Shown: in pieces, positions 7,055 to 55,013 of the stretch
Layout: the number at the start of each line of letters is the position of its first letter
Position numbering within the stretch: the first letter of the stretch is position 1
Program-made: the position numbers and the translations under genes
Assembly (NCBI RefSeq): GCF_006912135.1
Contig: NZ_VIRS01000006.1
Location: 248,001 to 312,000 of the forward strand
Direction of reading: 5' to 3'
DNA: 64,000 nt
Source: Cryptosporangium phraense
GTDB lineage: Bacteria > Actinomycetota > Actinomycetes > Mycobacteriales > Cryptosporangiaceae
Notes under the pieces: generated by a model
What the model was told of the DNA's origin: nothing
Seen by the model: only the letters and a program-made list of their open reading frames with translations
The model's database searches: none

Positions 7055-8524
7055 ATGACGCGCTATCGCACTGCAAGCGTGGTGACGTCTTGCGTTGCCC
7101 TGGCCGCTGCGGTGTCCGCCTGGAGGCCCCACGGCTGTACACAGGGACTGGTGCGCGTAACGATCAGCATTTTGGTCGTCGTTTTCGTCGTCATCTCGGT
7201 GCGGCGGCTGCCGTGGCGCGATCAGATGCCATGGCAGCTCTTCGCTGTCGGCCATCTCGCGACCGCGGCAGGTGCGCTGGTCAGCTCCCTCTCCGGCGGG
7301 GGACTCAACACGCAACAGGCCCAGCTGTGGACCGCCGGCGCCGCCTTGCTATTCCTCGCTGCCAACAGCGCAGGCATGGCAGTCCTCATCCGGCGTTGGA
7401 ACATTCACCGCGACAGCGCCGCGTCGATTGAGTCTGCAGCCGTCGTGGTTAGCCTCAGTCTCATCTCATGGGTTTGGGCGATCGCTCCGGCCGACGAGCT
7501 GACTGTGGCGGCCTCCGGCGACGTGGGAGTCCGGCTGGCCTTCGTGGGGGCAGGCCTGCTCGAGGTTGCTCTCGCGGTCCTCGTCATGCGCGGCGGCTCG
7601 CGAACCGTCGTAGCGGCTCGGCTACTCACCGCGGCCACCTTTCTCAGCTGGTTCGGTTCGATCCTGCACATCGCCGGTAACCGGCCAATGACCGACGACT
7701 CACTCATCGCCTGGCTGAGCAACACGCTATGGACTCTCGCGATGCTCCTGCTCGCCGCTGCCGCAGCGCACCCGAGCGCGGCACGGCTCGGCCGACCCGC
7801 GTCCACGCGGCCCGCGCACTCAGTGATCACTCTCGCAATGCTGGGGGGAGCCGCGATCCTCCCGCCGGTCACACTGCTCGTCGATACCGTGCGCAGTTCA
7901 GCAACCGTCATTGCGGTCGCCGTAGCGTCGATGCTGTTGGTGTTGCTGTTGCTGCTGCGCGTCGGTCAGCTTCTCCGACATGTGCAACGACAATCGAACC
8001 TCTTGTACCTCCAAGCTAACCGGGACGAGCTGACAACTCTGCCGAACCGTCGCTCCTGGAGCGAGGCCGCCGCGACGCTGGCGAGTGATTCACCCGGCGA
8101 AGAGCCCGCCGCCGCCGTCGCGATCCTCGATCTGGATCGCTTCAAGCTGTACAACGACACGTTCGGGCATGCCGCCGGCGACGATCTCCTTCGGTCGGCC
8201 GCCGAGGCATGGCGACGGTGCCTGCGGGCGACGGACGTCCTGGCCCGCCACGGCGGGGAAGAATTCGTCGTCCTGCTCCCGTCGCCCGATACGGAGATTG
8301 CTCGCCGTGTCCTGGAACGGATGCAGGAGGCCACCCCATACTCGCAGTCCTTCTCCGCGGGGATCGCCCGCTGGGAATTCAGAGAACCAGTCGACGCGGC
8401 GCTCGCCCGCGCGGACGAGGCGCTTTACCGCGCGAAGGCTGAAGGCCGCCGCCGGGTGTACATCGCGCCATCACCCACAACAACCGCACCCGCCCGGCAC
8501 ACGGCGCCCTCGCCGGTGCCCTAG
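7055..8524 (+). CDS. Membrane-bound diguanylate cyclase (GGDEF domain)
   Basis: A 489-aa protein with a multi-helix membrane region (about residues 5-310, roughly eight segments) and a C-terminal GGDEF domain. The active-site loop is GGEEF at residues 400-404, a functional variant. The product-inhibition site RATD (391-394) sits five residues before it, so feedback by cyclic di-GMP is likely. The metal-binding segment LDLDRFKLYND is intact. It should make c-di-GMP from GTP in response to an unidentified membrane signal. GGAGGA precedes the ATG at 7055. The gene is convergent with the molybdoenzyme gene, and their stops share CTAG at 8521-8524. Confidence 0.92.
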   Translation: MTRYRTASVVTSCVALAAAVSAWRPHGCTQGLVRVTISILVVVFVVISVRRLPWRDQMPWQLFAVGHLATAAGALVSSLSGGGLNTQQAQLWTAGAALLFLAANSAGMAVLIRRWNIHRDSAASIESAAVVVSLSLISWVWAIAPADELTVAASGDVGVRLAFVGAGLLEVALAVLVMRGGSRTVVAARLLTAATFLSWFGSILHIAGNRPMTDDSLIAWLSNTLWTLAMLLLAAAAAHPSAARLGRPASTRPAHSVITLAMLGGAAILPPVTLLVDTVRSSATVIAVAVASMLLVLLLLLRVGQLLRHVQRQSNLLYLQANRDELTTLPNRRSWSEAAATLASDSPGEEPAAAVAILDLDRFKLYNDTFGHAAGDDLLRSAAEAWRRCLRATDVLARHGGEEFVVLLPSPDTEIARRVLERMQEATPYSQSFSAGIARWEFREPVDAALARADEALYRAKAEGRRRVYIAPSPTTTAPARHTAPSPVP

Positions 8525-10797
8525 TGAGCCGGTGAACGCTGCAGGCGGATGACGACCGACTTGGAAACTGGGGTGTTGCTGATCTGCGCGGTGTTGTCGA
8601 GCGGAACCAGCACGTTCGTCTCCGGGAAGTACGCCGCGCAGCACCCCCGAGCGGTGTCGTACGCGACCACACGAAAGCCCGGGGCGACGCGTTCACCGTC
8701 GGCGTACTCGCTGATCAGGTCGACCTGGTCGCCGTCGGCAATGTCCAGCGCGGCGAGATCGCTGGGGTGGACGAAAACTACTCGGCGGCCAGCGCGGATG
8801 CCGCGGTAGCGGTCGTCGAGCCCGTAGATGGTGGTGTTGTACTGGTCGTGCGATCGCAGCGTCTGCAGGAGCAGGCGCCCCGGGCCGACGCGTAGGACTT
8901 CCAGCGGGTTGACCGTGAAGTTCGCCTTACCGGTCACGGTGGGGAACATCCGGGCGTCGCGAGGGCCGTGCGGCAGGACGAAACCGTCGGCGGTCCGGAC
9001 GCGTTCGTTGAAGCCCTCGAAGCCGGGCACGACCCGCGAGATCCGGTCGCGGATCGTGTCGTAGTCGGCAGAGAACGAGGTCCACGGAAGGTCTAATCCC
9101 GGCACAGTCCGCTCGGCGATTCCGCAGACGATGGCCACCTCGGACCGCAGCTGCGGCGACGCGGGACGGAGGTGACCGCGTGAGGCATGCACCGCGCTCA
9201 TCGAGTCCTCGACCGTGACGAACTGTGGTCCGCTCGCCTGCAGGTCGGCTTCCGTGCGACCGAGCGTCGGCAGGATCAGCGCGCGACCGCCGGTGACCGC
9301 GTGCGAGCGGTTGAGCTTGGTGGAGATCTGCACGGTGAGGCGGGTGCCGCGCAGAGCCGCCTCGGTCACCGCAGTGTCCGGCGTCGCGGAGACGAAATTG
9401 CCGCCGAGCCCCATGAACACCTTCACGGTGCCGTCGCGCATCGCCCGGATCGTCTCGACGACGTCGTGACCGTGCGCCCGGGGCGGATCGAAGCCGAACT
9501 CGTTGGCGAGCGCATCGAGGAAATCCGCAGCGGGTTTCTCGTAGATACCCATGGTGCGGTCACCTTGGACGTTGCTGTGGCCCCGGACCGGACAGACACC
9601 CGCCCCGGGGCGCCCGACGTTGCCGCGCAACAGCAGGAAGTTCACGACTTCCCGGATCGTCGGCACCGAATTCTTGTGTTGGGTGAGGCCCATCGCCCAG
9701 CAGACGACGATCCGCTCGGAGGCGAGGACCCGCTGGTGGATCCGCTCGATCAGCGCGCGGCCGAGCCCGGTGGCCTCGAAGACGTCGTCCCAGTCCAGCG
9801 ACCGGTTGGCCGCGGCGAATGCCAGAAACCCGTGGGTGTGCTCGGCGATGAAGTCGTCGTCGAGTGCGTCCTCGGTTTCCAGGAGCAGCCGGTTGAGGGC
9901 TTGGAAGAGCGCCAGGTCGCCGTTAATGCGGATCTGCGCGAACTCATCGGCGAGCACGGTTCCGTTGCCGATGATCCCGGACGCCTTCTGGGGATTCTTG
10001 AAGCGCAGCAGCCCCGCCTCCGGCAGCGGGTTCACCGCCACGATCGCCGCGCCGGCAGCTTTGGCCTTCTGCAGCGCGGAGAGCATGCGGGGATGGTTCG
10101 TGCCCGGGTTCTGGCCGACGACGAAAATCAGATCCGCACGGTAGAGATCCTCCAGCGATACGCTGCCCTTGCCGACGCCGAGCGTTTCGACCAGCGCCGA
10201 CCCGGACGATTCGTGGCACATGTTCGAGCAATCGGGCAGATTGTTGGTGCCGAACGCGCGCACAAAAAGCTGGTACAGGAACGCGGCTTCGTTGCTGGTG
10301 CGCCCCGAGGTGTAGAACGACGCCTCGTTCGGATCGTCTAGCGCGGCGAGCTCTGACGCGATCAGGTCGAACGCGGCGTCCCAGGAGATCGGCTCGTAGT
10401 GCTGGCGGCCGGCCGCGAGGAGCATCGGCTCGGTGAGCCGGCCTCGCTGGCCCAGCCAGTAGTCGCTGCGTGTGGCGAGGTCGGTCACCGAATGCCGGGC
10501 GAAGAATGCCGCGTCGACCCGCCGCTGGGTGGCTTCCTCGGCCACGGCTTTCGCGCCGTTCTCGCAGAACTCGGCGGAGTTGCGGTGCTGCGGATCGGGC
10601 CACGCGCAGCCGGGGCAGTCGAACCCGTCTTTCTGGTTGACGCGGGCGAGCGTCAGCAGGGTTCTTCCGGCGCTCATCTGCCGGCTTGCGTGCCGCAGCG
10701 ATTGCAGCACGGCGGGGATGCCGGCCGCGTACTGCTTGGCCGGTCCGACGACCAGTCCCCGGTCGTCAACGTCGTCAGCCGGAGGTGTTGTCACCAT
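8521..10797 (-). CDS. FdhF/YdeP-family molybdopterin oxidoreductase
   Basis: A 758-aa molybdopterin enzyme of the FdhF/YdeP type, related to formate dehydrogenase alpha subunits. Near the N-terminus the cysteines C61, C64 and C78 probably hold an iron-sulfur cluster. The cofactor domain contains CHESSG at about 194-199, typical of YdeP-like members. Cys or SeCys of true formate dehydrogenases sits in CHxPS or UHxPS, so formate may not be the substrate. A C-terminal molybdopterin dinucleotide-binding domain follows (about 640-750). It has no twin-arginine signal, so it is cytosolic. It stands alone, separated from the upstream catabolic operon by a terminator. Confidence 0.88.
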   Translation of the reverse strand: MVTTPPADDVDDRGLVVGPAKQYAAGIPAVLQSLRHASRQMSAGRTLLTLARVNQKDGFDCPGCAWPDPQHRNSAEFCENGAKAVAEEATQRRVDAAFFARHSVTDLATRSDYWLGQRGRLTEPMLLAAGRQHYEPISWDAAFDLIASELAALDDPNEASFYTSGRTSNEAAFLYQLFVRAFGTNNLPDCSNMCHESSGSALVETLGVGKGSVSLEDLYRADLIFVVGQNPGTNHPRMLSALQKAKAAGAAIVAVNPLPEAGLLRFKNPQKASGIIGNGTVLADEFAQIRINGDLALFQALNRLLLETEDALDDDFIAEHTHGFLAFAAANRSLDWDDVFEATGLGRALIERIHQRVLASERIVVCWAMGLTQHKNSVPTIREVVNFLLLRGNVGRPGAGVCPVRGHSNVQGDRTMGIYEKPAADFLDALANEFGFDPPRAHGHDVVETIRAMRDGTVKVFMGLGGNFVSATPDTAVTEAALRGTRLTVQISTKLNRSHAVTGGRALILPTLGRTEADLQASGPQFVTVEDSMSAVHASRGHLRPASPQLRSEVAIVCGIAERTVPGLDLPWTSFSADYDTIRDRISRVVPGFEGFNERVRTADGFVLPHGPRDARMFPTVTGKANFTVNPLEVLRVGPGRLLLQTLRSHDQYNTTIYGLDDRYRGIRAGRRVVFVHPSDLAALDIADGDQVDLISEYADGERVAPGFRVVAYDTARGCCAAYFPETNVLVPLDNTAQISNTPVSKSVVIRLQRSPAH

Positions 10798-10825
10798 CGA
10801 TTGGTCACCGCATCCATGGTCGAGT

Positions 10826-10855
10826 GCTGCACCGGCCCGGCGGGGCCGGTGCAGC
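10826..10855 (-). terminator. 13-bp stem terminator after FAH operon
   Basis: GCTGCACCGGCCC (10826-10838) pairs perfectly with 10843-10855 around a four-base loop. It lies six bases past the end of the leftward FAH-family gene and would end the operon that starts near 16043. Confidence 0.8.
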
Positions 10856-10861
10856 GTTGGG

Positions 10862-11869
10862 TCATCGGCCGATCAGCGCACCGTCTCGCTTGCTGGGCCA
10901 CCAGGTCTCGTCCGCTCGCTGGCCCATCCGGTTCCGCAGAATTCCCACGCTCTCGACCTCGAGTTCGACGAGGTCACCCGGGTTGAGCTTCCGGTCGAGC
11001 TCCAGAGCGGATCCGTTGCCGACCGTGCCCGATCCGATGACGTCGCCGGGGAGGATGTATTCGCCCAGCGACACGTAAGCGAGCAGCTCGTCGACCGACC
11101 ACAGACTGTTGGCGGTGCTGCTCGTGGACCAGGTCTCCCCGTTCACCCGGACTTCGACGCGGAGGGAGCCGAGGTTGGCGATCTCGTCGATGGTGGTGAT
11201 CCAGGGGCCGATGCCGTTGGCGAAATCCTTGCTCTTGGCACCGCCCATGCCGATCTGCATCTCGTTGGTCTGCAGGTCACGGCCGCTGAAGTCGTTGAAG
11301 ATGGTGACGCCGAATAGGTAGTCCCGTGCGACGTCTGGAGTCAGGTTCCGGCCCCGCCGTCCGACGACGTATCCGAGCTCAAGTTCGTAGTCCATCTGGT
11401 TGATGTAATGGGGGAAGTAGACCTCATCCTCGTGGCCGATGATTCCCTCGGTGGCGAGTTTGGCGTAGCCCGGGATGCTCAGCATCGCCTCCGGCGGGGT
11501 CGTTCCCCATTTGCCGAACATGTTGTTGATGTGACCCAGGAACGTCAGCCCGTCGCGCAGCGTCCGTGGGTCGGCTGCCGACAGCCAGGTGACGTTGGCG
11601 AGGGGGATCGACGCGTCGTCCCCGCCGTGCTGGGTTGCGGCTTCGGCGGTCTCGAGCAGGCTATCGCCGGTGGCGATAGCGGCGGTCATGCTGCCGGGAA
11701 AGGCAGCGGCAGCCAGCCGACGCGCGGCATCGGGCTCGGCGTGCCGGCCCTGCAGGCGCAGCGCCTCGGCCCGGGCCAGGTCGACGACCCGGCCCTCTTC
11801 GGGCAGGACGCGCACCAGCCGTGCGACGGGGCCGTCGGGGCCGGGGACGGAGATTCGACCGAGCTTCAT
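10862..11869 (-). CDS. FAH-family hydrolase/isomerase
   Basis: A 335-aa fumarylacetoacetate-hydrolase-family protein. The catalytic C-terminal domain (about 105-315) has the metal ligands in YELELGYVVG (E-x-E) and FNDFSGRD, then GAKSKDFANGIGPW and the closing GSGTVGNGSALEL. Members cleave or isomerise beta-diketo acids and related ring-fission products. AGAGGAG lies seven bases before the ATG. It is the last gene of the OB-fold/thiolase/cupin/acetoacetate-CoA ligase operon. It differs from true fumarylacetoacetase at 28511, so it probably acts on a separate ring-fission product. Confidence 0.85.
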   Translation of the reverse strand: MKLGRISVPGPDGPVARLVRVLPEEGRVVDLARAEALRLQGRHAEPDAARRLAAAAFPGSMTAAIATGDSLLETAEAATQHGGDDASIPLANVTWLSAADPRTLRDGLTFLGHINNMFGKWGTTPPEAMLSIPGYAKLATEGIIGHEDEVYFPHYINQMDYELELGYVVGRRGRNLTPDVARDYLFGVTIFNDFSGRDLQTNEMQIGMGGAKSKDFANGIGPWITTIDEIANLGSLRVEVRVNGETWSTSSTANSLWSVDELLAYVSLGEYILPGDVIGSGTVGNGSALELDRKLNPGDLVELEVESVGILRNRMGQRADETWWPSKRDGALIGR

Positions 11870-41365: not shown

Positions 41366-42904
41366 TCAAGCCGCGTCCCGCCGGTCGTGTCGCGACCGCG
41401 GACCCGGATCGGTGTCCGGCCCGGTGGTGGGATCGCGGTCGATCGGCGACGCGTCGCCGGGGGCCGAGTCAGGGTCGAAGGCGTCGCTGATGGCGTTTTC
41501 GGCGGTGGTGTACGCGATGAGCAGGAAGCCGGCGTAGACGCGCATGAGGACGTCGATGCCTTGTCCGGCGCGGCGGGCGGCTTCGGTGATGGGCAGGCCG
41601 TTGGTGATCCAGACGGTGATGCCGCCGTGCCGGAAGTCGTAGGCCCGGCGCGCGACGGGGGATGCGGCTTCGTCGGGGGTGAAGGCGATGGCGCGGGCGA
41701 GGTGTAAGGCTCGGCCGTAGCCGGAGTCCTGCAGGGGGTTGCCGCGCATATTGGTGAACACGCGCCCGTCCAGACCGGCCCCGTAGCGTTTGAGGTGGTC
41801 GCGCAGCATGGTGACGAGGATCGGCGGGATCGGGACCCGCCGGGTCTCGGTGGCGGGCCGGTGTTTCAGGCCGCGAGCCTGGCGGGGCCGGCCGGTGTCG
41901 GTCCAGGCGGATCCGGCTTTGGCTTCGCTGCCGAGCAGGTCGAGCCACCCCCATCCGGAATCGGGCAGGTGGCAGGTGTTCTCTCGCAGCGCGACGGCCT
42001 CCGAGGGGCGCAGCGCGGCGTAGTAGAGGGTGGCGAAGAACGTCTGCAGCCGTTCGGCCCACGGCCCGATCTGCTCGAGCGCGGCGAGCAGGTCGCGGAC
42101 TTGCTGTGGGGTGGGGACGATGCGGCGGTCGATGGCGTCGGCGACTGCGGGCGGGCGCCAGCGGACGGATTTCAGGGGTGGGGTGGTGAGCAGGCCGCGT
42201 TCGAGGGCGTAGCCGCAGGCGCCGGAGAGGGCGGCGCGTTTGCGGGTGATGACGCTGGCCGCGGACGGGGTCCCGTCGAGCTTGCGAGCACAGGCGTCCA
42301 GGACGCTGCGCACGGTCGCGGGGTTGCTCAGGACATGCACGGGCAGGGACGCGGTTTCGAGCCAGGCGAGCGCGACCACCGCGTCCGGCGGTGGTTGTTC
42401 GGTCCATGCGGTTTCGGGCCGGAACGCGAAGCGCATTAGCGCGCGGCGGCACTCGGCGTCCGGTGGGGCGCCGCGGCGGCGCCGGTCGAGCAGCGCCATG
42501 GTGACCGTGGTCAGGCCCTCGGCCTGCGAACGCCGCCCGTTGGGCGAGAGCCGGGGCCACTGCAGCAGCGTGTAGTCCCGGGCGTGCGCGAGCCAGGTTG
42601 TGGTGGATTTCGCGCGGGCCATGCTGGCGGGCAGCCCGGTGTGGGTGTCGAACGGCTCGCCTTTGCGGTAGGCGGTTTCGAGGTCGGTCAGGTAGTACCC
42701 GGCGGGGGTTTTGTCGCGGAACGATTCGTGGAATTCGCGTCCGTCGACGGTCCACCGCACCCGCCACCGGCCTTTCGCCGGCGGCTTCGTGGTGTTGGGG
42801 TTCTTGCGGGGTTTCGGGGAGAGGAACTGCAGTTTCTGGAATCGGACCTGGAACGACGTGGTCGCCGTCGGGTCGGGCGGTGGGCCGGGTGTGCGGCGGG
42901 TCAT
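41366..42904 (-). CDS. int: Tyrosine recombinase (integrase)
   Basis: A 512-aa phage-type integrase. The N-terminal half holds the arm- and core-binding domains. The catalytic domain contains YYAALRPSEAVAL (first Arg), DFRHGGITVWI (Arg-His box; the preceding box II His is Tyr, as in many actinobacterial integrases), and RRAGQGIDVLMRVYAGFL with the nucleophilic Tyr. The ATG at 42904 overlaps the stop of the excisionase-like gene. It should catalyse insertion into, and with Xis removal from, a tRNA gene; a tRNA-Lys 3' half lies 0.9 kb away. Its 3' end points away from that site. Confidence 0.92.
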   Translation of the reverse strand: MTRRTPGPPPDPTATTSFQVRFQKLQFLSPKPRKNPNTTKPPAKGRWRVRWTVDGREFHESFRDKTPAGYYLTDLETAYRKGEPFDTHTGLPASMARAKSTTTWLAHARDYTLLQWPRLSPNGRRSQAEGLTTVTMALLDRRRRGAPPDAECRRALMRFAFRPETAWTEQPPPDAVVALAWLETASLPVHVLSNPATVRSVLDACARKLDGTPSAASVITRKRAALSGACGYALERGLLTTPPLKSVRWRPPAVADAIDRRIVPTPQQVRDLLAALEQIGPWAERLQTFFATLYYAALRPSEAVALRENTCHLPDSGWGWLDLLGSEAKAGSAWTDTGRPRQARGLKHRPATETRRVPIPPILVTMLRDHLKRYGAGLDGRVFTNMRGNPLQDSGYGRALHLARAIAFTPDEAASPVARRAYDFRHGGITVWITNGLPITEAARRAGQGIDVLMRVYAGFLLIAYTTAENAISDAFDPDSAPGDASPIDRDPTTGPDTDPGPRSRHDRRDAA

Positions 42905-43236
42905 GTGTGGGTCTCCGGAACGAGGTCGGTGTGAGCGTTGATCCAGGCGTCGAGGTCGGCGCGCCGGAACCGCAGCTGTCCGTTGGGCAGGCGGATCGCG
43001 GGTGGTGCGTCGCCGAGTTGCCGCCATCGGTAGAAGGTCGAGCGGGGCACGGCGAGTTCGGTGAGGACTTGCGGCAGGGTCAGCAGCGGTTCGGCGGCCG
43101 GGTCGGCGTCGGGGTTGGGGGGGACGGGAGCAGTGCCATGGACGCTCGGTGTCCGCCGACCGGTCAAGTCGGTGTCGCCGGGATCCGCAGGACCAGCCGG
43201 CGCGGTGCGTCGGGCGTGGGGTGGGTGATGCGGCAC
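42901..43236 (-). CDS. Excisionase-like helix-turn-helix protein
   Basis: A protein of up to 111 aa whose C-terminal 60 residues form a MerR/AlpA-type winged helix: LTLPQVLTELAVPRSTFYRWRQLGDAPPAIRLPNGQLRFRRADLDAWI. This is the usual form of actinobacterial Xis. The first 45 residues are low-complexity, and the start (GTG 43236) is uncertain. It overlaps the integrase gene by four bases. A repeat array that could be its binding sites begins 123 bases upstream. Confidence 0.8.
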   Translation of the reverse strand: MPHHPPHARRTAPAGPADPGDTDLTGRRTPSVHGTAPVPPNPDADPAAEPLLTLPQVLTELAVPRSTFYRWRQLGDAPPAIRLPNGQLRFRRADLDAWINAHTDLVPETHT

Positions 43237-43504: not shown

Positions 43505-43789
43505 CCAGGGTCGCCGCGGCCGGCGCTCACAATGACACCGCTGACCATCGACGTGAACGCCGGACGCAGCGCCGACTTCGAGCCGTCAGAGAGCACCGCA
43601 CCGATCAGCGACCGGACCCGGCCGAGTGCCCGGTTGAACAGGCACAGGAAGCGGCGGCGCGACCAGACGACTCTGCGCAGCGTGTCGGCCCTACACGGAG
43701 CGGCGCTCACGCGCGGTGGCGAGCTTGCGAGGTCGCTCGTCGGAGGGTCATCCGAACGGGCAAATCCGCAGGAGATTGAAACCGTCGGT

Positions 43790-43833
43790 CTTTTAATCCG
43801 CGGGTTCTGGGTTCGATCCCCAGGCGGCCCACC
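43790..43833 (+). other. Attachment site: 3' half of tRNA-Lys(TTT)
   Basis: The sequence runs from the anticodon loop CTTTTAA (anticodon TTT at 43792-43794) through the variable loop, a perfect T arm (CTGGG/TTCGATC/CCCAG, 43807-43823), the acceptor strand GCGGCCC and discriminator A. No matching 5' half exists upstream: the acceptor partner and D arm are missing, and the anticodon stem is mismatched at both ends. It is therefore a duplicated core left by site-specific integration, not a tRNA gene. The intact tRNA-Lys copy was not found in the window. Confidence 0.72.
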
Positions 43834-44208
43834 CGCTGACCTGCTGGTTTGCCTAATGCAACTAGTGTCGGAACTCGCCTAACGGCGTTTGGTGGCTCCT
43901 TGGCGGCTCCGATGTCGGGGACGTGTCGTTTCCGCAGATCAGCTGGCACCTCAAGCCCTCATCCTTGGTCGACTCGCTTACGACAGCTGCTTCGGCGCGA
44001 CGGTCGACCGTGCTGCAGCGAGCTGCCCTTCTCGAAGCTCCGGTGACCCAGGAATGACTTAGGCCGGCTCTCGGCGAGCGCAGGGCGAGCGGAAGGGTGG
44101 CGGGCTACCTCGGCGACCGCCAGCTGGTCAGCCAGGTACGTCGCCCGAATGCACAGTGGACTGGGGAGCTCCTGCAAGGAACCATGACGGCGGGGATGGG
44201 GGTGCGCG
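43834..44208. other. Region between att site and defence-like operon
   Basis: 375 bases without a convincing gene. The G-rich GATGGGGGTG just before the TTG at 44209 may act as a ribosome site. The promoter of the three-gene operon should lie here; I saw no clear hexamers. Confidence 0.4.
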
Positions 44209-44913
44209 TTGGAGACAGACACGACCACGGCGACTCGAAGTCAACACGCGATCAGGCTGTTGACCCTGCTGCGGGTCTGTGGCCAGGCTGTGGGAGGCGG
44301 CGATCCCGAGGCCGCGGTGCAGGTTATTCGGTCGGAGAAGCGCCTCCAGGCCTTGGACTTCTGGCTTCGCAACCCCGACTATCTGGCAGACGAGCTCATC
44401 ACAGGAGTCGTCAACGACGTCATTGACGAGTCATACCTTGAGGTGGCCGAGAGGTTGCTGACCGACCCAGAGCCGGCCTGGCATCACTACCCGATGCCCA
44501 AATGGTTCTACGGCGCCTACGAATCGGTAGACGACGCATTCGCCCTACTTGACACATATGAGTTGGCGTTCGTGCGGCGGCGAGGGGCGCCTCCGAAGCG
44601 ACTGCAGAACTCCTTCTTCCTCACGCAACACGGCGCCGCCATGGCTGATGAGCTGGCGACTACTGCGGTGTTGGACTGGTACCCGCGCCAGGCGGTCTTG
44701 GTCCACCTGGTGGCGGGTGACGATTCGGGCAGCCGCCTGAAGGAACGGCAGTACGCGCAGGAGGCGTACGCGCTAGCGACCTGGGGTGAACCCATCGGCT
44801 CGATTGGTGATCAAGTGGTCCGGCGCCTGAGGGAATCGAGGGGCCCGGCCGTCGCGACGGTCGGTGGCCCTACGGCGACGACGCCGGACGGGAATCAGGT
44901 GGGGGACGCATGA
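44209..44913 (+). CDS. Middle-component-like protein of three-gene conflict operon
   Basis: A 234-aa, mostly helical protein. It contains the run EKRLQALDFWLRNPDYLADELI (about residues 43-64), which resembles the middle components encoded next to SMC-like ATPases in ABC-three-component (ABC-3C) systems. This is a recognition from pattern, not a computed match. No catalytic motif, signal or membrane helix is visible. The start is TTG at 44209; an in-frame stop at 44185 rules out a long extension. It overlaps the ATPase gene by ATGA, so the two proteins are made together and probably form a complex. Confidence 0.65.
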   Translation: METDTTTATRSQHAIRLLTLLRVCGQAVGGGDPEAAVQVIRSEKRLQALDFWLRNPDYLADELITGVVNDVIDESYLEVAERLLTDPEPAWHHYPMPKWFYGAYESVDDAFALLDTYELAFVRRRGAPPKRLQNSFFLTQHGAAMADELATTAVLDWYPRQAVLVHLVAGDDSGSRLKERQYAQEAYALATWGEPIGSIGDQVVRRLRESRGPAVATVGGPTATTPDGNQVGDA

Positions 44914-46973
44914 CGCGGCTCGGTCAGGAGGTCGCTGGTGCAACTGGACGACCCGTGGACGACGTGGAAGCGGTGCTCGCAAAGCATCGGGTGACGGCGT
45001 CGGCAGCGATCCCCTCGCCGGCCTACCTCTGCTTCACCCGCCTGCGATTTTCCGGAACGAAGGTTCTGACGGGTGTAACGGCCGATGGCATCAAGGTCGA
45101 GCGCGACGCGGTCACCCGAGTTCCCTTCAACTTCGACTGGACCCTTTCCACGGGTCTTCACGGCATCGGAAGCGACGAAAACCTCCGGGGTAAGTCCAGC
45201 ACCATCAAGGTCTTCATGTGGGCTCTGCGAGGCCGATGCGATCTGAAGAACGAGGTGAGGCAGTGGATCGACCACGTCGAAGCCGAACTGGTCATCGACA
45301 CCGTCGCCTACCAGGTGATGTTTGACGTCGACCATGCTCGTAACCACGCTCCTACCGGAACTCTCACCCGCGTGAAGCCGGGGGACGCCGCACTGACTGT
45401 CGGCGTCTTCGAGGACGACGACCAGTTCGAAGAGGTGATGGGCTCGGCGATGATGGCCGCGCTGCGGCTACCGCCGATTGCCGGCCAGCAGGAGGGGCGT
45501 CGGACCCAGCACACGTGGCCGACATATGCGGGAGCGCTGCTGGTACGCGGGGACAACCTTCAGTTCCTTCTGGGAGACGTGCAGTGGGCCGGATTGCCGT
45601 CCCGGTTGCTTTCGCTGTTCGTCGGGTCGGAGTGGGCTGCTGCACGGGCTGAGGCCAAGACAGCGCTCACCGTTGCAGAGGCCGAACTTGCCCGATTGGA
45701 GTCAGCGGCGAGCCAGCACGCCTCGGCCATGAGCGTGGCGCACGCGGAAGCATTGCGGGCGCTGGAGGCCGCTCGTACTCGGGTGGAGCTGCTCAGTGCA
45801 ACGACGGTCGATATCTCGGCGGTGACGCGCGCCGTCAGCAGGCTTTCAGAGTTGAACACGCAGATGGCGAATACCTCCCGTTTGCTGCGGGCTGCTCAAG
45901 CCACGCTCACCCTCGCGTCCAGCCAGTACACGGAGGAGATGAAACGCCGCCTGCGCGATCAGGAGGACGCCCAGGCCATCCGGTTCTTCCAGAAGCTGCG
46001 TCCGACCGTCTGCCCGCGATGCGCTACGCCCGTGACCGCCGAACGCTTCGCGGAGGAGAGCGCCGGTCACTCGTGCTCGGTATGCACGACCGACCTCGCC
46101 AGCGACGCCCACACCAGCCACCTCGTTGAAGGCGACTCGGCTCTGCATCCTGAGCAGACCGAACCCGGCCCGGTGGCCGGGCGTGGCGAGCTGGACGACG
46201 CTGCCGAACTCGACGAACCAGTTAACAGCGTCGAGGCTCTTATTACCGCCCGGAACAACGCGCAGGCAGAGACGCGAAGGCTTCAAGGTCAGCTCACCGC
46301 TGTCGAGACAGAAATCGCGAGTCTCTCCGCTGAACTTGACGCCAACCAGGCAGCTCAAGCAGCGGTCGCGGAGCGCAGAGACGCGGAGTTGGCCCTTGCC
46401 CGCGCGCAGGGCGCCGCTGACGCCCTGAAGCCGCAAGCGGGCCCAGTCGGACCCGACACCGCCATGATGGATGCCATCCGCCAAGACATCGAGGTTCTCA
46501 AAGCCGCAGAGAAACTGACCGCTGACTGGGTGACGAGGGCGCAGAGCACGTGGCTTGCGGAGCTCAGCGAGGACGTCACGACGCTCGCCCGGGAGTTCGG
46601 CTTCTCTAATCTCACCCGGGTCGAGGTCAACGGCGGCGCCCGGATGAGGGTTACCCAAGGCGGCGGGACCAACAACTATGGCGCTTGTGAACGCGGGGAG
46701 CAGTTGAGGCTGAAGCTCGCGACGGCCGTGGCTCTCATCCGACAGGGCCGCAGCCGCGGGGTGGGCAGGCACCCAGGGCTGCTGTTCGTTGACTCACCCG
46801 GTGCCGAGGAAGTGGCGGAAGACGACTTCGACAGCATGATCGAAGCGCTGCATCGAGCCGCCGAGGCGGCCGATATCCAGGTGTTCGTCGGAACCCGTCA
46901 TACCGCTGAACTGGCGAATTTGCTCGGCGAGGACCGATGCCGTCTCGGTCACGGCACTCACTTTGTTTGGTAA
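44910..46973 (+). CDS. SMC/Rad50-like ATPase with coiled coil and paired CxxC hook
   Basis: A 687-aa ATPase built like Rad50/SMC. The N-terminal head carries a P-loop variant DENLRGKSS (GKSS at 94-97; the usual first Gly is Asp). Coiled coils span about 241-362 and 438-508. Between them lie C368/C371 (CPRC) and C389/C392 (CSVC), a likely zinc-binding tip. The C-terminal head has a signature-like ACERGEQLRLKLA near 592-604, Walker B LLFVDSPG (624-631, D628, without the usual DEP Glu) and an H-loop His at 664. Such proteins bind and remodel DNA. It starts by ATGA overlap with the middle-component gene. Confidence 0.8.
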   Translation: MTRLGQEVAGATGRPVDDVEAVLAKHRVTASAAIPSPAYLCFTRLRFSGTKVLTGVTADGIKVERDAVTRVPFNFDWTLSTGLHGIGSDENLRGKSSTIKVFMWALRGRCDLKNEVRQWIDHVEAELVIDTVAYQVMFDVDHARNHAPTGTLTRVKPGDAALTVGVFEDDDQFEEVMGSAMMAALRLPPIAGQQEGRRTQHTWPTYAGALLVRGDNLQFLLGDVQWAGLPSRLLSLFVGSEWAAARAEAKTALTVAEAELARLESAASQHASAMSVAHAEALRALEAARTRVELLSATTVDISAVTRAVSRLSELNTQMANTSRLLRAAQATLTLASSQYTEEMKRRLRDQEDAQAIRFFQKLRPTVCPRCATPVTAERFAEESAGHSCSVCTTDLASDAHTSHLVEGDSALHPEQTEPGPVAGRGELDDAAELDEPVNSVEALITARNNAQAETRRLQGQLTAVETEIASLSAELDANQAAQAAVAERRDAELALARAQGAADALKPQAGPVGPDTAMMDAIRQDIEVLKAAEKLTADWVTRAQSTWLAELSEDVTTLAREFGFSNLTRVEVNGGARMRVTQGGGTNNYGACERGEQLRLKLATAVALIRQGRSRGVGRHPGLLFVDSPGAEEVAEDDFDSMIEALHRAAEAADIQVFVGTRHTAELANLLGEDRCRLGHGTHFVW

Positions 46974-47112
46974 CGAGCAGGCACCGGTATTCACCAAACA
47001 TCGCCTGCCGCGCCATGATGTGACCCACGGGCCCGGTAGCAGAGGCAAGTGAAAGGAGTTCTGCGGCAGATCGGATGACGATCCACGCCTTCGCGCGTGA
47101 AGGGAGGTCCTG

Positions 47113-49200
47113 ATGACCCACGGTGACAGCGACGCGCCGGCTGCTTCCCGGACCGCCGCCTCGGCCGACCAAATCCTTTTGCGCTGCCAGGGCCGCACCC
47201 CCACCCTCACCGACTTCGGCGGCTGGACAGATTTGATCGCGCTGCTGCCCGAGCTCGTCGATCATCCTTTGCTCATCGCTGTCGCTCACCTGATGGCGGA
47301 CCCCGCCATGACCGAGCACTCGATGCAGCAGGCGACGGACGCCGCCGGCCACCTGGCGAGGGCGATCGTTGCGACTAAGAGTCCAACGATCTTCCGAGAC
47401 ACTGTCGACCAGGTACTTGCATCCGATCAGCTGCTTGTGGCCACGGCAGGCGTCCTGTCTGCTCCGCTGCTGGCTCAAAGCGCACAGCCCTCTCGCGGTG
47501 CATCACGACGCGAGGCACTTCGTGCAGCCGATGCGCTTGAGGTATCAGTCCAGCTACGGCTAGGCAACTGGGCGCCGCGGTGGGACCTGTTCGCCGTGCT
47601 CGCTGCCTATGACGGGCGCGGACCAGCCGTCTATGGCAGAGCTGTCCTGAGGGCCGTCGTCGCTGCTATCGAACAGTGGACCGAGGCGGTGGATCTCCTT
47701 CCTGCGGCTCGCCGAGTGGCGGGCCTGGAGGCACCGCTGGGCACCGCCGACCCGAGCCAATCAGCCAGCGACCCGGCACTGAGCGATTCGGATACGGGTC
47801 TAGCGCTCTCACGCATATCCGTCCTGCTAGCGCTCCGGTCCACAGACAAAGCGGCGCTGCTCACACACCTCGACGACGCCGTTCGCTATCTCCAGCCTGC
47901 GCTCGAAGACGACGATCGGCCCGATGCGCACGTCACAGCCGACATCGCTCTGCTGCTGCGCGACCTGCTGGTGACTGGCTCGATCGCTGACGCGGACCTA
48001 CCGGGAAGAATCAAGGCCAACGTCCGGGAACTCCTTCACCTGGACCCCGGGCGCAGCCACTGGTTGGGGCAGCGTATAGCCGCCGCGCACGCCGCCTGGG
48101 CCAAACTCGCGGTCCAATTGTCCGAAGCATACGAGCACCTCAGCGAACCTTCCTGGTACCAGGCGGCCGCAGTCATCGACGATGTCGTCGCCCTCTATCG
48201 CACCACCGGCTCCACGCACATCTTCCGACGCACCGAAGACGGCGCAGCAATCCACGACATCGTCGCTCCAACCCTGGAAGCAGGCTTCGCCGACCAAGCA
48301 GGCCTGATGCGTCACCTGCAAGACCATGTTCGTCACCTCGAGCTGCTCTGCAATGAGGGCACAGCCACCCCCGACCAAATCGCCGACCTACCTGTCGCTG
48401 TCGCGCTTCGCGACGCGGCCGCCGAACAATTCCGAGACCCCGCCGGCGGGTACCGCCCAAAATCGGAGGCCGGCATGCCTCCCGAAGGTGGAGGCCTGTC
48501 GGCTAGTCAGACCGCAACGGCATTCCCTCGGTACTCTCTCGAAGAGAGTGGTCCGGACACGCCATCACAAGCTCGTGTCCGCCAGGCAGTTGCTGTACGT
48601 ATTAGTGGAGCCAGGGCATTCTCGCGGTCGCTCGTCGTCGACGAACTGCTCGACCGGGCAATGACGGGGCTCCGAGCCTCCGTCGACTACGTAGACGACA
48701 TCGCCGAGTGCGTAAACCTGGTGACCGAGCTCCTCGTCATGTTCCTCTGGGACCGAAATCAGATCGGCGCCAGCGAGGCCCCATACCTGTACAACCCTGA
48801 CGCGGACGAAGACGATCTCGCGAAGGACCTACGCCAGTTCCTGCGAGCCAGCGGCCAGCTCAACGGAGTGGACTCCGAGGTCCGGCACAAAGCCGGAGGG
48901 CGGGTCGACGTCGAGTTCGGCTTTCCAGGCTTTAGCCTCTTCGTCGAACTTAAGAAGGACGCGACGCGTAAGCCGGTTCCTGACAAGAAGTCCTACCTCG
49001 ACCAAGCAGCGTCGTATCAAGTAGCTGACCCTCGCATCGGGTTCCTGCTCGTTCTCAAGCTCGTTCCTGCCGAGAAAGCGCCGAAACCTCACCTACTGGA
49101 CTGCCTCGAAGTCGTCGAAGTCGCCGATGCGAACGGTGCGCCGCGCCACGTCGTTGCTCTCACGCTCTCTGGCGCGTTGACGAAGCCATCGGACATGTGA
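47113..49200 (+). CDS. Large helical protein with C-terminal PD-(D/E)xK nuclease-like domain
   Basis: A 695-aa protein that I do not recognise as a whole. The first ~560 residues are predicted helical and may be a repeat scaffold. The last ~130 contain a PD-(D/E)xK pattern: GRVDVEF with D599, then VELKK with E612 and K614, and a downstream QAASYQ (631-636) like the QxxxY motif of RecB-type nucleases. This suggests a metal-dependent DNA (or RNA) endonuclease. GGGAGG lies seven bases before the ATG. A 139-base gap separates it from the ATPase gene, same strand. It is followed by a terminator, so it probably closes the operon as effector. Confidence 0.72.
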   Translation: MTHGDSDAPAASRTAASADQILLRCQGRTPTLTDFGGWTDLIALLPELVDHPLLIAVAHLMADPAMTEHSMQQATDAAGHLARAIVATKSPTIFRDTVDQVLASDQLLVATAGVLSAPLLAQSAQPSRGASRREALRAADALEVSVQLRLGNWAPRWDLFAVLAAYDGRGPAVYGRAVLRAVVAAIEQWTEAVDLLPAARRVAGLEAPLGTADPSQSASDPALSDSDTGLALSRISVLLALRSTDKAALLTHLDDAVRYLQPALEDDDRPDAHVTADIALLLRDLLVTGSIADADLPGRIKANVRELLHLDPGRSHWLGQRIAAAHAAWAKLAVQLSEAYEHLSEPSWYQAAAVIDDVVALYRTTGSTHIFRRTEDGAAIHDIVAPTLEAGFADQAGLMRHLQDHVRHLELLCNEGTATPDQIADLPVAVALRDAAAEQFRDPAGGYRPKSEAGMPPEGGGLSASQTATAFPRYSLEESGPDTPSQARVRQAVAVRISGARAFSRSLVVDELLDRAMTGLRASVDYVDDIAECVNLVTELLVMFLWDRNQIGASEAPYLYNPDADEDDLAKDLRQFLRASGQLNGVDSEVRHKAGGRVDVEFGFPGFSLFVELKKDATRKPVPDKKSYLDQAASYQVADPRIGFLLVLKLVPAEKAPKPHLLDCLEVVEVADANGAPRHVVALTLSGALTKPSDM

Positions 49201-49227
49201 CGGCTGAACAGTTACGCGGCTAAGGGG

Positions 49228-49260
49228 CCCCAGTCGGACGGCCTTCAGTCCGGCTTGGGG
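49228..49260 (+). terminator. Terminator after defence-like operon
   Basis: CCCCA plus GTCGGAC pairs with GTCCGGC plus TTGGGG across an eight-base loop (49240-49247), with one G-T pair and one bulged T. It lies 27 bases past the stop at 49200. Confidence 0.6.
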
Positions 49261-49455
49261 GGTTAGCACCGGCTGTGGGGGTGCTGTGAACGGCGCCCAC
49301 TGGACGCCCTGCGTCCATGGTCAGTCGAAATGCCCCGGACCCTGGGCTGGGTGGAGCGCCGCTGCGCGATGGCGAGCGCCGTGTTGTGTGCCGAGGAGTT
49401 AGGTGATCTCGATGGCTGGCCGTTGCCGTCCTCGCGTACATGAGTCGAAGGGCCA

Positions 49456-50724
49456 CTACGACCACAGGAGGTCTTCGTCGTCCTGGAGACGTGACGGGAT
49501 CGGGTAGGCGGTCAGGGTGTCGGTGACGACGGTGACTGGGTCACGGTCGAAGGTCGACGGGGCGACGGGGCCGAACTGGTAGGGCTCTTTCGGCGGAGGC
49601 TGCCCGTTACGCACGCCACCGTCGGCTTCCGCATCGGAGTCTTCGCGGCTGGGGTTTGCTTCCGATCCTTGAGCGGGGAGTTTTCCTCGCCTCCGCTGGG
49701 GCATGGGATCGTAGAATTCGAGAAGCCCGAACTCGACGAGCTGCTGGGCGTGGAGATACACCTCTCCGCTGATGCCGTAGCGGCCCCAGCGCACCGTACG
49801 TGGGAGCGCGACCGTGGCCCGTGATGGTCCGCTTTGGGCTGAGTCGTAGTTGAGCCGCCATTGCTGGTCGAGGACGGCCAGCAACATCACCAATTCGGCC
49901 GGTTCCAAGACCAGATGCCAGCCATTCCAGAAAAACGCGGCGGGAAGCCTCAGCCCGGTGGGGCTCCTCTCGGGCGGCACGCGGTATCGCAGGCCGCTTC
50001 CGTCTTCCTGCAGCAACTGCCACTGCTCGTATCGGTAGCGGGTCCCCGGCGGATGAAGAGCCACCAGACCTGCGGCTTCCAGCACATCCAGCGCGCGGTG
50101 GACTTGGGCGCGCCGAGCGCGGGGCCCTCTCGGAGCGGTCAGCGCGGCCAGAGACGCCCAGGCCGGGCCGGTCTCCGGCCGGCCACGAAGATTGGCGAGG
50201 TCGTTGACGAATACCGGCCGCATCCCCGGGCGTGCCGGATCGGCGCGCAGGTGCGCGACGTAGACCGCGGTCAGGTAGAACGCCAGCGCGTTGGAACGCC
50301 GGTGGACCAGACGGGTCGCCGGGGGTCGGCTGGCGACCTCCGCCGCCTGCCGGTCGCGGTAGTCAGGACCGGCATCGACCGCGAGGCTTTCGTCGGGCCA
50401 CGCGTCGGCCGAGTCGCGCAGTCGCATCGTGCTCAATCGTATGAAACCGGGCAGGATCCGAATCTCCGGGACATCGCCGGTATCGATCGTCCGGTAGTCG
50501 GCTCGGGCGCGCTCCAGAGCAACACGTTTTCTCGCTAGCCGGGTCAGCCGTTGCTCGCGTGAAGCCCGCATCCGCTCGACGCTGCGTTCTCGCCAGGCTG
50601 CCTGCCGCTGCCGGTCGAGGACCGGATCCGGAGGAATCTCGCCGCGCGGGGGCGACTTGCCAGGTGACACGGCGAACCTCCCGGCTGGTCCGACACGGCG
50701 AAGAAGGTCACGGCGGAGCGGCAC
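49456..50724 (-). CDS. Hypothetical protein with winged-helix-like segment
   Basis: A 422-aa protein that I do not recognise. An Arg-rich N-terminal part (residues 1-75, including a charged helix rich in R/E) could bind nucleic acid. A segment RRAQVHRALDVLEAAGLVALHPPG (about 205-228) looks like a winged helix. A second such segment may lie near 320-345, giving a layout reminiscent of plasmid replication initiators. The start is GTG at 50724 with AGAGG nine bases before. The upstream ~40 bases are AT-rich. Role in an integrated element is plausible but unproven. Confidence 0.6.
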   Translation of the reverse strand: MPLRRDLLRRVGPAGRFAVSPGKSPPRGEIPPDPVLDRQRQAAWRERSVERMRASREQRLTRLARKRVALERARADYRTIDTGDVPEIRILPGFIRLSTMRLRDSADAWPDESLAVDAGPDYRDRQAAEVASRPPATRLVHRRSNALAFYLTAVYVAHLRADPARPGMRPVFVNDLANLRGRPETGPAWASLAALTAPRGPRARRAQVHRALDVLEAAGLVALHPPGTRYRYEQWQLLQEDGSGLRYRVPPERSPTGLRLPAAFFWNGWHLVLEPAELVMLLAVLDQQWRLNYDSAQSGPSRATVALPRTVRWGRYGISGEVYLHAQQLVEFGLLEFYDPMPQRRRGKLPAQGSEANPSREDSDAEADGGVRNGQPPPKEPYQFGPVAPSTFDRDPVTVVTDTLTAYPIPSRLQDDEDLLWS

Positions 50725-50888
50725 ATAGCACTACCTCTTCTCGTAGGAAGAATAGTCAATCGATAAGTAGAGACCCGTGCCGCTCTGCCATGACCTCGAC
50801 CGCATGGCGGTCGCGTTGCGACCTAGGGAAACTCGCCGAACAACAACCGCGAGCGCCCCAGCCACCGGGGGCGAGAGGAGTTCCACCC

Positions 50889-51095
50889 GTGAATACGCGT
50901 ACGACGACCGACCCGACGCCCCCATCCCTGCTGCCGATGCGTTCCGCGCTGATCATCGTGATCGCGTTGCTCGTCGGCGCGGTCATGGGCGGGCTGACAC
51001 TGTGGGGCGGCACGTCACTGCCGGTGGCGCTGGTGGCCGGACTCTCCACCGCTGGTATTTCCCTGCTACCGCTCGACCGCATCGTCGGCAGGTGA
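50889..51095 (+). CDS. Small two-helix membrane protein
   Basis: A 68-aa protein with two hydrophobic helices (about residues 17-38 and 42-60), starting at GTG 50889 with AGGAG eight bases upstream. No family recognised. It lies divergently from the gene at 49456. Small proteins of this shape include holin-like and toxin-like products, but nothing here proves either. Confidence 0.5.
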   Translation: MNTRTTTDPTPPSLLPMRSALIIVIALLVGAVMGGLTLWGGTSLPVALVAGLSTAGISLLPLDRIVGR

Positions 51096-51451
51096 ACAAC
51101 CGGCAGACGGTGGGCGTCCAGCGTCGGTGACCCGCTCGTCGGCTGCCGATCGCGAGGGGCTGCCCGGCTGGCGACGATTTCTCTGCGCCGAGGTGGCTGG
51201 AGCGACAACGGGTGGGAACCGAGGCGTTCGGACAGCGTCCACGGTGCAGCTGGGTAAGGCGGCGAAGGCCGCAGGCCGAAAGCTCTCGAAGAGTCGGCTG
51301 CCCGCTTGCCCGGGGCCGCGCGGGTGGCATGGGACCGGTTCGAGTCGTCTGAGCTTCGGTTCGTGTCAGGTACCTCTGACGGCCTGGTGCGGAGCCGACC
51401 GTGATCCGCAGGTACGCCTGGTGGGCCGGCCGGTCGCGGGCTCGACGGTTG
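51096..51451. other. Intergenic region, nothing supported
   Basis: 356 bases between two small membrane-protein genes. A long rightward open frame crosses it, but its composition and lack of a start site do not support a gene. Confidence 0.4.
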
Positions 51452-53222: not shown

Positions 53223-54134
53223 CTAGAACCGTGGAATGCTGTTGCAGTACGCGGTCGCGCCTCGACCCGGGTACCACTGGATGTAGCAGTTGTTCTGGAA
53301 GTTGGTGCGACGACCACCATCGGTGGTCGCGAATTCATCTGATGTCGGGAAGCCGAGCTGGCTGTTCTCCCAGCCGAGTGCCGCCCAGCGGTCGCGAATC
53401 TGGCCGTGGACTTCGTGCGCGCCTGTTGCGGGAGACCAGTAGATCGACCATCCGGCCTGGAAATGGTTGAACGCGCCGGTCTTGCGTGGTGTGCGGATCT
53501 CATCGGTTACTGGGAAGCCCATGTCGCCGCGTTCCCAGCCCATCGACGCCCATTTATCGCGGATGAGTCCGTGGACTTCGTGTGCTCCGGTAGCTGGGGA
53601 CCAGTAGATCGACGCGTTCTTGCTGAAGTGGTTGAACGCTCCGGTCTTGGTGGGAGTGGATGTTTCGTTGCTCGTTGGATATCCCACGATGCCTTGCTCG
53701 TAGCCGAGCGAAGCCCACTTGTCGTTGATCGATCCGACCACCTCCCGCCACCCGACTTGTGAGGTTCTGACCAGCGTCGTGCCGTCGAACATGTAGCGCT
53801 CGTTTAGGCCGAAGCCCACCACCGATTTGGCTTTCTGCTGTGTGTGTCCCTCGCAGCGGTGGACACGTGTCCCGATTACTCTCGCGCCGCTGTCGGCGCT
53901 GATCCACTCTCGCTCGTACACCCGGTATAGACGCGGCCCGGTGCGCACGACCTCCCGCGGTGTTTCCTTGGCCCACGGGTTGGCCGTTCGCCCGGTCTCC
54001 CACGTTCCGGTATGACACAGCGGGCTGGACGGCTCCGCGGCTTCTGCCGCCGCCGTCGCGAAGGGGCTGATCGCTAGCAGGCCCACGGCTACAGCGATCG
54101 TGCCCGCACGTCTCCAGCCCAAAGTCCGTCCCAT
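53223..54134 (-). CDS. Secreted LGFP-repeat protein
   Basis: A 303-aa exported protein with a signal peptide (about residues 1-32, cleaving near AEAAEP). After a unique domain with two Cys (about 38-130) come LGFP repeats of about 53 residues. Each has W-A-S/A-L-G-W/Y and GYPTS or GFPTS/GFPVT: units near 137-190, 190-243 and 243-295. LGFP repeats are thought to anchor or stabilise proteins at the actinobacterial cell surface. AAGGGGGA precedes the ATG at 54134. Repeat units 1 and 2 are also very similar in DNA, showing recent duplication. Confidence 0.88.
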   Translation of the reverse strand: MGRTLGWRRAGTIAVAVGLLAISPFATAAAEAAEPSSPLCHTGTWETGRTANPWAKETPREVVRTGPRLYRVYEREWISADSGARVIGTRVHRCEGHTQQKAKSVVGFGLNERYMFDGTTLVRTSQVGWREVVGSINDKWASLGYEQGIVGYPTSNETSTPTKTGAFNHFSKNASIYWSPATGAHEVHGLIRDKWASMGWERGDMGFPVTDEIRTPRKTGAFNHFQAGWSIYWSPATGAHEVHGQIRDRWAALGWENSQLGFPTSDEFATTDGGRRTNFQNNCYIQWYPGRGATAYCNSIPRF

Positions 54135-55013
54135 GTTTCCCCCTTGAAATGATTCGCATCCCACCCAGCCCGAAAGGCGCCTCCGGGCGCAACGGGCGGG
54201 AGTAACAGACCACGATTCCCTCGATCCGGTAAGCACCGCCCCGGGAAATGACCCGATCGTTCGTGCGGCCGCACCCGTTACGGACTGTCGCTATCGGCGT
54301 TTCGGCTCAGCGGCACGGCCAATCGGGCGATCAAGGTGAGCGGGCCACTCGTGCCGGCCGCGGATGCTCCGATGTGGCAGAGGCGTATGCATGGGTTGGG
54401 TGCATGGGTTGGGTGCATGGGTTGGGTGCATGGGTTGGGTGCATGGGTTGGGTGCATGGGTTGGGCCGTTGGATCGTCTCCGGTCGGTGGGAGCGAATGC
54501 GCCGGTTGTCGTTCGGGCCCGCGGCGGGACCGGCGTCGGCGGGCTCGGACTCGGTTCCGGCGGCACCGCCCAGGCGCGCAGTGAGCCCCTCGTGCGCTGA
54601 TCCGATGGGATGGTGACCGTGCGCCTCGGCCCCGAATCGAAACTCCGGTTCAGCAACCGCGGTGTGTGCGGAGCCTCCACACTGGCGAGTATCTCCTACT
54701 CTGTCCCGATCCCCTTCCGAGACCGGGCAGGGGCTGACTATCCCGGGAAGAGACAATTCGGCAGGCCCGGCGGGTCAGATGTTCGCGGATGGCGTGCCCG
54801 GCCACCGGGTGGGACACTTTGGCGCCTGGCTCCGAGCGCTATGGCACGACGTACGGTTGCTGGCGCCGCGGTGGGATTTCTGGATGGCGTATTTGGAGCG
54901 CTGGACACGCTGCCTCGTCAGTGTCCGGCGTTGATCGCTGGCCCCGTGGCGCGGAGCCGGCCGGACGGCGCCTTGAGGAGCGGTCGGCGTGGTCGGGGGC
55001 CTAGGATTTTGTC
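54135..55013. other. Long non-coding region with G-rich minisatellite
   Basis: 879 bases without a convincing gene. It holds the promoter of the leftward LGFP gene and a 78-base tandem repeat (54388-54465). A 51-codon frame at 54779-54934 is Trp-rich and has fair codon bias, but it has no good ribosome site; I leave it uncalled. Confidence 0.5.
54388..54465 (+). repeat. Six perfect 13-bp tandem repeats (G-quadruplex-prone)
   Basis: Six identical copies of TGCATGGGTTGGG fill 54388-54465 exactly. Every unit supplies two GGG runs, so twelve are spaced alternately by 2 (TT) and 5 (TGCAT) bases, the pattern expected for stable G-quadruplexes on the + strand. The array lies about 250 bases upstream of the divergent LGFP gene. 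A 13-bp unit reads in all three frames as the same 13-residue repeat; those frames are not genes. Confidence 0.95.

What the first reader, a model, noticed from the sequence alone, without database searches (positions are those of the whole stretch)
44209..49200. Candidate three-gene conflict/defence operon: middle component, SMC-like ATPase, nuclease-like effector
Seen: a 234-aa helical protein overlaps by ATGA a 687-aa ATPase with split heads, coiled coils and paired CxxC, followed by a 695-aa protein with a PD-(D/E)xK pattern. A terminator follows, and an integrase, excisionase and tRNA-derived att site lie beside it. Established: ABC-three-component systems combine an SMC-like ATPase, a middle component and an effector, and are thought to act in defence. 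Inference: this is such a system or a new relative, in which the ATPase senses foreign or damaged DNA and licenses the nuclease. The large helical effector fused to the nuclease does not match a form I know.
Basis: partly seen in the sequence, partly recalled or inferred. Interest (0 to 1): 0.86.

Follow-up and report, generated by a model that had tools for sequence, protein, structure and literature searches.

The report
Lamassu-family operon with C-terminal nuclease
These three genes belong to a known family of bacterial immune systems called Lamassu, predicted to stop phages or plasmids; this one carries its predicted DNA-cutting part at the far end of a long helical protein rather than at the front.

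Summary
Three same-strand ORFs (234, 687, 695 aa) lie as stated, with an integrase, an excisionase-type gene and a tRNA-Lys fragment upstream. PADLOC models name all three over nearly their whole length: LmuC (E 1.1e-67), LmuB (1.8e-181), LmuA (4.5e-106). So this is a Lamassu system, which a review places in one superfamily with ABC-3C (PMC10586767). In 10 of 10 sampled genomes with a strong match to this LmuB (this genome included), lmuC-lmuB-lmuA stand together in that order. The system is rare and patchy. LmuA ends in an invariant PD-(D/E)xK signature (21 of 21 domains) on a predicted nuclease core, behind a predicted helical solenoid. Unlike the review's general picture, the nuclease is C-terminal, LmuB has two CxxC pairs, and Ser stands at the Walker B Glu. 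I expect abortive infection: LmuB/LmuC sense invader DNA and release the nuclease; this mechanism is inferred. A good catch, but a new member of a known kind.

The parts
44209..44913 (+). lmuC (middle component), 234 aa, TTG start; predicted winged-helix-like protein
44910..46973 (+). lmuB, SMC/Rad50-like ATPase, 687 aa, overlaps lmuC by ATGA
   Evidence: PADLOC PDLC03864 E 1.8e-181, residues 4-687; Walker A-like, two CxxC, signature-like and Walker B-like motifs
47113..49200 (+). lmuA, effector, 695 aa: N-terminal helical solenoid, C-terminal PD-(D/E)xK nuclease
   Evidence: PADLOC PDLC03853 E 4.5e-106, residues 26-695; AlphaFold2 model pLDDT 74, pTM 0.55
48808..49170 (+). nuclease domain of LmuA, about residues 566-686; E566, D599, E612-x-K614, Q631
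   Evidence: invariant in 21 of 21; alpha-beta-beta-beta-alpha-beta order in the model; weak Pfam PDDEXK_9 match in 5 of 21 members, best E 0.0074
49228..49260 (+). hairpin after the operon, possible terminator without a T-run
   Evidence: fold z -2.3, 4 of 200 shuffles as stable; no consensus terminator there
43785..43844 (+). 3' part of a tRNA-Lys(TTT) gene, probable attachment-site relic
   Evidence: 98% over 50 bp to an intact tRNA-Lys on C18; 92-94% to two copies on C16; single copy in the window
41366..43027 (-). tyrosine integrase
   Evidence: PHROG 1 integrase E 1.4e-26; weak Pfam Phage_integrase E 0.023
42901..43236 (-). excisionase-type HTH_17 protein, 111 aa
   Evidence: Pfam HTH_17 E 3.6e-10, AlpA 1.1e-4
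49456..50724 (-). 422-aa protein of unknown family, at the right-hand border shared with a sibling site on contig C16
   Evidence: 49425-51388 is 86% identical to C16, protein 88-89%

Best explanation
A Lamassu (ABC-three-component) defence operon, lmuC-lmuB-lmuA, against phages or plasmids, lying next to an integrase and a tRNA-Lys attachment relic. LmuB, a short Rad50/SMC-like ATPase with a zinc-binding hinge, acts as a dimer and together with the small LmuC holds LmuA inactive. On meeting an abnormal DNA structure or DNA end of an invader, ATP-bound LmuB, which lacks the canonical catalytic Glu and so may hydrolyse slowly, changes state and frees LmuA. LmuA multimerises or is positioned through its helical solenoid, and its C-terminal PD-(D/E)xK domain cuts DNA, killing or arresting the infected cell. 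Shown here: family identity, operon integrity and co-inheritance, invariant nuclease and ATPase motifs, predicted folds, patchy distribution. Inferred from other Lamassu systems: complex formation, DNA sensing, release of LmuA, abortive infection.
For: Near full-length PADLOC matches to LmuC, LmuB and LmuA. Strong LmuB hits in 9 of 394 class genomes at E <= 1e-60 plus G196 of the phylum sample make 10 genomes, this one included, and all 10 hold C-B-A in that order (G196 has lmuA in two ORFs). 13 of 15 loci from named genomes have C-B-A. Distance matrices of the three proteins agree over 12 loci: r 0.987, 0.942, 0.949, 0 of 5000 permutations each. Motifs. Models. No LmuA match in the 3 congeneric genomes. 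LmuA relatives on 22 of 72,556 plasmid records, two of three inspected with C-B-A. A sibling site in the same genome shares both borders but has other, conflict-type cargo. Lamassu biology: PMC10586767 and PMC8565338 (passages; section 9 of the first).
Against: No PDB relative of LmuB or LmuC by sequence profile, and for LmuA only short weak matches to designed proteins and V-type ATPase subunits, so no solved Lamassu structure supports details for this branch. The PDB fold searches of LmuA were filled by its solenoid and show no nuclease among the rows listed. Neighbour ORFs show only scattered defence genes, no clear defence island (141 ORFs of 16 loci). One of three inspected plasmid relatives (R. 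opacus pROB02, L078) has lmuA without lmuB or lmuC in the 5 kb flanks; it lacks the first ~100 profile positions, so it may be decayed. No experiment on this subfamily was found in the searches made.
Confidence: 0.9

Rival explanations
1. A repair or chromosome-maintenance complex of the Rad50-Mre11/SbcCD kind that has acquired an attached nuclease, with no defence role.
For: LmuB is Rad50-like; its one sub-threshold NCBIfam match of note is to an archaeal SMC-related protein (E 4e-06, 25.7 bits against a cutoff of 300).
Against: Patchy: LmuB in 9 of 394 class genomes, LmuA in 4 of 396 phylum genomes and 4 of 101 relatives; no LmuA in 3 congeners; on plasmids; beside an integrase; PADLOC Lamassu models fit nearly full length.
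Confidence: 0.04
2. A refinement of the best explanation: the system serves mainly in competition between mobile elements (plasmid or ICE exclusion) rather than against phages.
For: Sits beside integrase, excisionase-type gene and tRNA relic; relatives on large plasmids; Lamassu acts on plasmids in Vibrio (PMC10586767, passages).
Against: Lamassu type II and other members stop phages (PMC8565338, PMC10586767, passages); nothing here separates the two targets.
Confidence: 0.25
3. An inactive relic: the genes persist but the system no longer works.
For: Noncanonical Walker A in this copy (Asp where 9 of 12 aligned have Gly); related copies are broken: lmuB split in L044, L047 and L079, lmuA split in G196.
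Against: All three ORFs are intact here and the invariant nuclease and cysteine residues are kept; two other relatives also lack that Gly (L042, L048).
Confidence: 0.08

Closest known systems
Lamassu family (LmuA/LmuB/LmuC), PADLOC models PDLC03853/PDLC03864/PDLC03872
   Same: All three proteins match nearly full length; SMC-like LmuB with CxxC; small LmuC; nuclease effector
   Different: From the general picture in PMC10586767: nuclease at the C-terminus of LmuA, whereas the review calls the effector domain likely N-terminal; two CxxC pairs; Walker B Asp-Ser rather than Asp-Gln; the 'middle' component is the first gene
DdmABC of Vibrio cholerae (Lamassu with Cap4-type nuclease; as described in PMC10586767)
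   Same: Same three-part logic and a nuclease effector
   Different: Effector domain N-terminal and Cap4-type there; no direct sequence comparison with DdmABC was made here
Second Lamassu of the same genome (contig C49: LmuB PDLC03862, LmuA PDLC03851)
   Same: Lamassu family; its LmuB also has Asp-Ser-Pro at Walker B and CxxC pairs (by eye)
   Different: 329-aa LmuA with a nuclease-like pattern in its N-terminal half (by eye); different PADLOC models
Rad50/SbcC
   Same: ABC halves around coiled coils with cysteines at the middle (recalled, and PMC10586767)
   Different: LmuB is much shorter; partners are LmuC and LmuA, not Mre11/SbcD; mobile and patchy

Membership tests
Lamassu / ABC-3C | SMC/Rad50-like ATPase LmuB | tested here: met
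   PDLC03864 E 1.8e-181 over residues 4-687; ABC-type motifs
Lamassu / ABC-3C | Small component LmuC in the operon (lacking in some systems) | tested here: met
   PDLC03872 E 1.1e-67; first gene, ATGA overlap with lmuB
Lamassu / ABC-3C | Effector LmuA with an enzymatic domain | tested here: met
   PDLC03853 E 4.5e-106; PD-(D/E)xK residues invariant in 21 of 21. Activity itself not tested
Lamassu / ABC-3C | Effector domain at the N-terminus of LmuA, docking domain at the C-terminus (called likely in PMC10586767; typical, not defining) | tested here: not met
   Order is reversed: helical solenoid first, nuclease last. PADLOC's LmuA model PDLC03853 has this same layout, so I treat it as typical rather than defining
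Lamassu / ABC-3C | Zinc-hook cysteine motif in LmuB (many but not all members) | tested here: met
   CPRC and CSVC-type pairs kept in 12 of 12 aligned (split or missing lmuB of L041, L044, L047 left out). Zinc binding not tested
Lamassu / ABC-3C | Walker B Glu replaced by Gln (general, not universal) | tested here: not met
   Ser at that place in 12 of 12; not the canonical Glu either
Lamassu / ABC-3C | Anti-phage or anti-plasmid activity by abortive infection | not testable with these tools
   needs expression and phage or plasmid challenge
PD-(D/E)xK nuclease superfamily (LmuA C-terminus) | Alpha-beta-beta-beta-alpha-beta core with D and E-x-K on adjacent strands | tested here: met
   H566-579, E587-594, E597-604, E607-616, H626-638, E642-649; D599, E612, K614 on the strands; predicted model only, block pLDDT 69-90
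PD-(D/E)xK nuclease superfamily (LmuA C-terminus) | Match to a solved or profiled member | tested here: inconclusive
   Pfam PDDEXK_9 in 5 of 21 members, best E 0.0074; PDDEXK_4 in 3 of 21, best 0.11; the window's own domain matched none; PDB lists filled by the solenoid

The most novel reading that the evidence does not exclude
This is a distinct, reversed-architecture branch of Lamassu in actinobacteria and on alphaproteobacterial plasmids. LmuA's N-terminal HEAT/ARM-like solenoid, analogous to the HEAT subunits of condensins, grips the SMC-like LmuB and DNA and positions a C-terminal nuclease, while LmuB (Ser at the Walker B Glu, an intramolecular zinc site from its two CxxC pairs instead of a classical hook) works as a one-shot ATP-binding switch. 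It would be a different way of activating the effector from Cap4-type Lamassu.
Probability: 0.3. Interest if true: 0.5.

Novelty: new member of a known kind. Interest (0 to 1): 0.32.

Why it matters
It adds an intact example of a Lamassu branch in an actinobacterium with the nuclease at the other end of the effector. That makes a simple question testable: whether Lamassu effectors are freed by the same mechanism wherever the enzymatic domain sits. The site also suggests exchange of conflict-type cargo next to a tRNA-Lys relic within one genome.

Tried and rejected

Literature searches. Read: PMC10586767 (passages; section 9), PMC8565338 (passages), PMC12799240 (passages), PMC11811056 (passages), PMC10482375 (passages); the other papers only as listings. 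The 2020 ABC-ATPase classification and the two 2025 Lamassu structure papers were not held, so I cannot say whether this branch is described there. Considered and rejected: housekeeping repair complex (patchy distribution) and chance ORFs (full-length family matches).

Full report
Observation. Searches confirm the three + strand ORFs at 44209-44913, 44910-46973 and 47113-49200, with the ATGA overlap. The ATPase has a Walker A-like motif near residues 87-96, CPRC at 368-371, CSVC at 389-392, a signature-like GEQLR at 596-600 and a Walker B-like VDSP at 627-630. Upstream lie a tyrosine integrase, an excisionase-type HTH_17 protein and a tRNA-Lys(TTT) 3' fragment at 43785-43844, of which the window holds one copy.

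Identity. PADLOC gives LmuC (PDLC03872, E 1.1e-67), LmuB (PDLC03864, E 1.8e-181) and LmuA (PDLC03853, E 4.5e-106), each over nearly the whole protein. Pfam and NCBIfam gave nothing above their cutoffs. The review PMC10586767 (passages and section 9 read) puts Lamassu, ABC-3C and DdmABC in one superfamily: LmuB as likely sensor, LmuC as small middle component, LmuA as effector. PADLOC's paper (PMC8565338, passages) calls systems with LmuC Lamassu type II and shows phage protection for one from Janthinobacterium.

Is it one unit? The LmuA protein matched 4 of 101 related genomes. In the phylum sample the LmuA model hit 4 of 396 genomes and the LmuB model 6 of 396. The 4 strong LmuB hits are the same 4 genomes; the weak ones (G203, G256, and a second place in this genome) are other LmuB types, without an LmuA or LmuC of this branch in the stretches taken. 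In the class sample 9 of 394 genomes had LmuB at E <= 1e-60. Together these are 10 genomes, this one included, and in all 10 lmuC, lmuB and lmuA stand adjacent in that order; in G196 lmuA is in two ORFs. A scan of named genomes found 15 loci, in Micromonospora, Actinokineospora, Kutzneria, Aeromicrobium, Frankia, an actinomycete MAG, Amycolatopsis, Prauserella, Mycolicibacterium, Saccharothrix, Modestobacter and Mycobacterium. 13 of 15 have C-B-A; L041 begins at a contig end and L049 keeps only a C-terminal lmuA fragment. lmuB is split in L044 and L047. Pairwise distances of the three proteins correlate over 12 shared loci (A-B 0.987, A-C 0.942, B-C 0.949; 0 of 5000 permutations each), as expected of genes inherited together, though common descent of the genomes contributes too.

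Setting. The three congeneric genomes have no LmuA match, and the DNA search lists no lmu match in them (40 candidates per genome scored). The stretch 49425-51388, with a 422-aa gene of unknown family, is 86% identical to contig C16 of the same genome, where the tRNA-Lys fragment region also recurs (78% over 165 bp). Between these borders C16 carries other genes, among them a 1252-aa protein with DUF4365 and a PIN domain and a SocA/Panacea protein. I read this as two related sites with exchanged cargo (inference). Neighbours of relatives hold only scattered defence genes. LmuA relatives occur on 22 of 72,556 plasmid records but in no phage record. Of three inspected, Sphingomonas (L077) and Roseovarius (L079) have C-B-A, with lmuB in two ORFs in the latter, and R. 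opacus pROB02 (L078) has lmuA alone within 5 kb flanks; the Sphingomonas proteins match the same three PADLOC models. Of the 14 Streptomyces plasmid records, 8 have the match within 20 kb of a record end (whether the records are linear was not checked, and most of these matches are partial). A paper reports Lamassu enriched at the ends of Streptomyces chromosomes and linear plasmids (PMC10482375, passages).

Mechanism. Most likely: LmuB/LmuC hold LmuA; an abnormal DNA structure or end triggers an ATP-dependent change; LmuA is freed and its nuclease cuts DNA, ending infection with the cell. Family, motifs, operon and predicted folds are shown; sensing, release and cell death are taken from other Lamassu systems.

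Verdict. A correct and well-described observation of a known kind of system, already recognised by a defence database. Its interest lies in the reversed effector and in the ATPase details.

Noticed in passing
L023 (G000:C49), 7703-9580 - and 10095-11084 -: A second, different Lamassu system in the same genome: LmuB PDLC03862 E 3.1e-194 and a 329-aa LmuA PDLC03851 E 8.3e-95, near a dnaG-type primase gene with a LAGLIDADG-like segment.
   Followed up: partly
window 43772-51388 against L058 (G000:C16): Two sites in one genome share a tRNA-Lys fragment region and a 422-aa gene but carry different cargo between them: lmuCBA here, and a DUF4365-PIN 1252-aa protein plus a SocA/Panacea protein there.
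   Followed up: partly
L059 (G000:C16, 38000-52000) and L060 (G000:C18, 115000-126000): Further tRNA-Lys 3' fragments about 8.3 kb apart on C16, and an intact tRNA-Lys with a 29-bp match to the fragment's end 4.3 kb away on C18, suggesting more elements at tRNA-Lys genes.
   Followed up: no
window 54388-54465: Tandem array of a 13-bp unit (TGCATGGGTTGGG).
   Followed up: no
window 53223-54236 -: 337-aa protein with a match to a phage endolysin family, phrog_2998 E 3.9e-38.
   Followed up: no
window 49456-50724 -: 422-aa protein with no Pfam, NCBIfam or PHROG match; found in 3 of 61 genomes searched (this one, G001 weakly, and G048, which also has lmuCBA about 29 kb away on the same contig).
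   Followed up: partly
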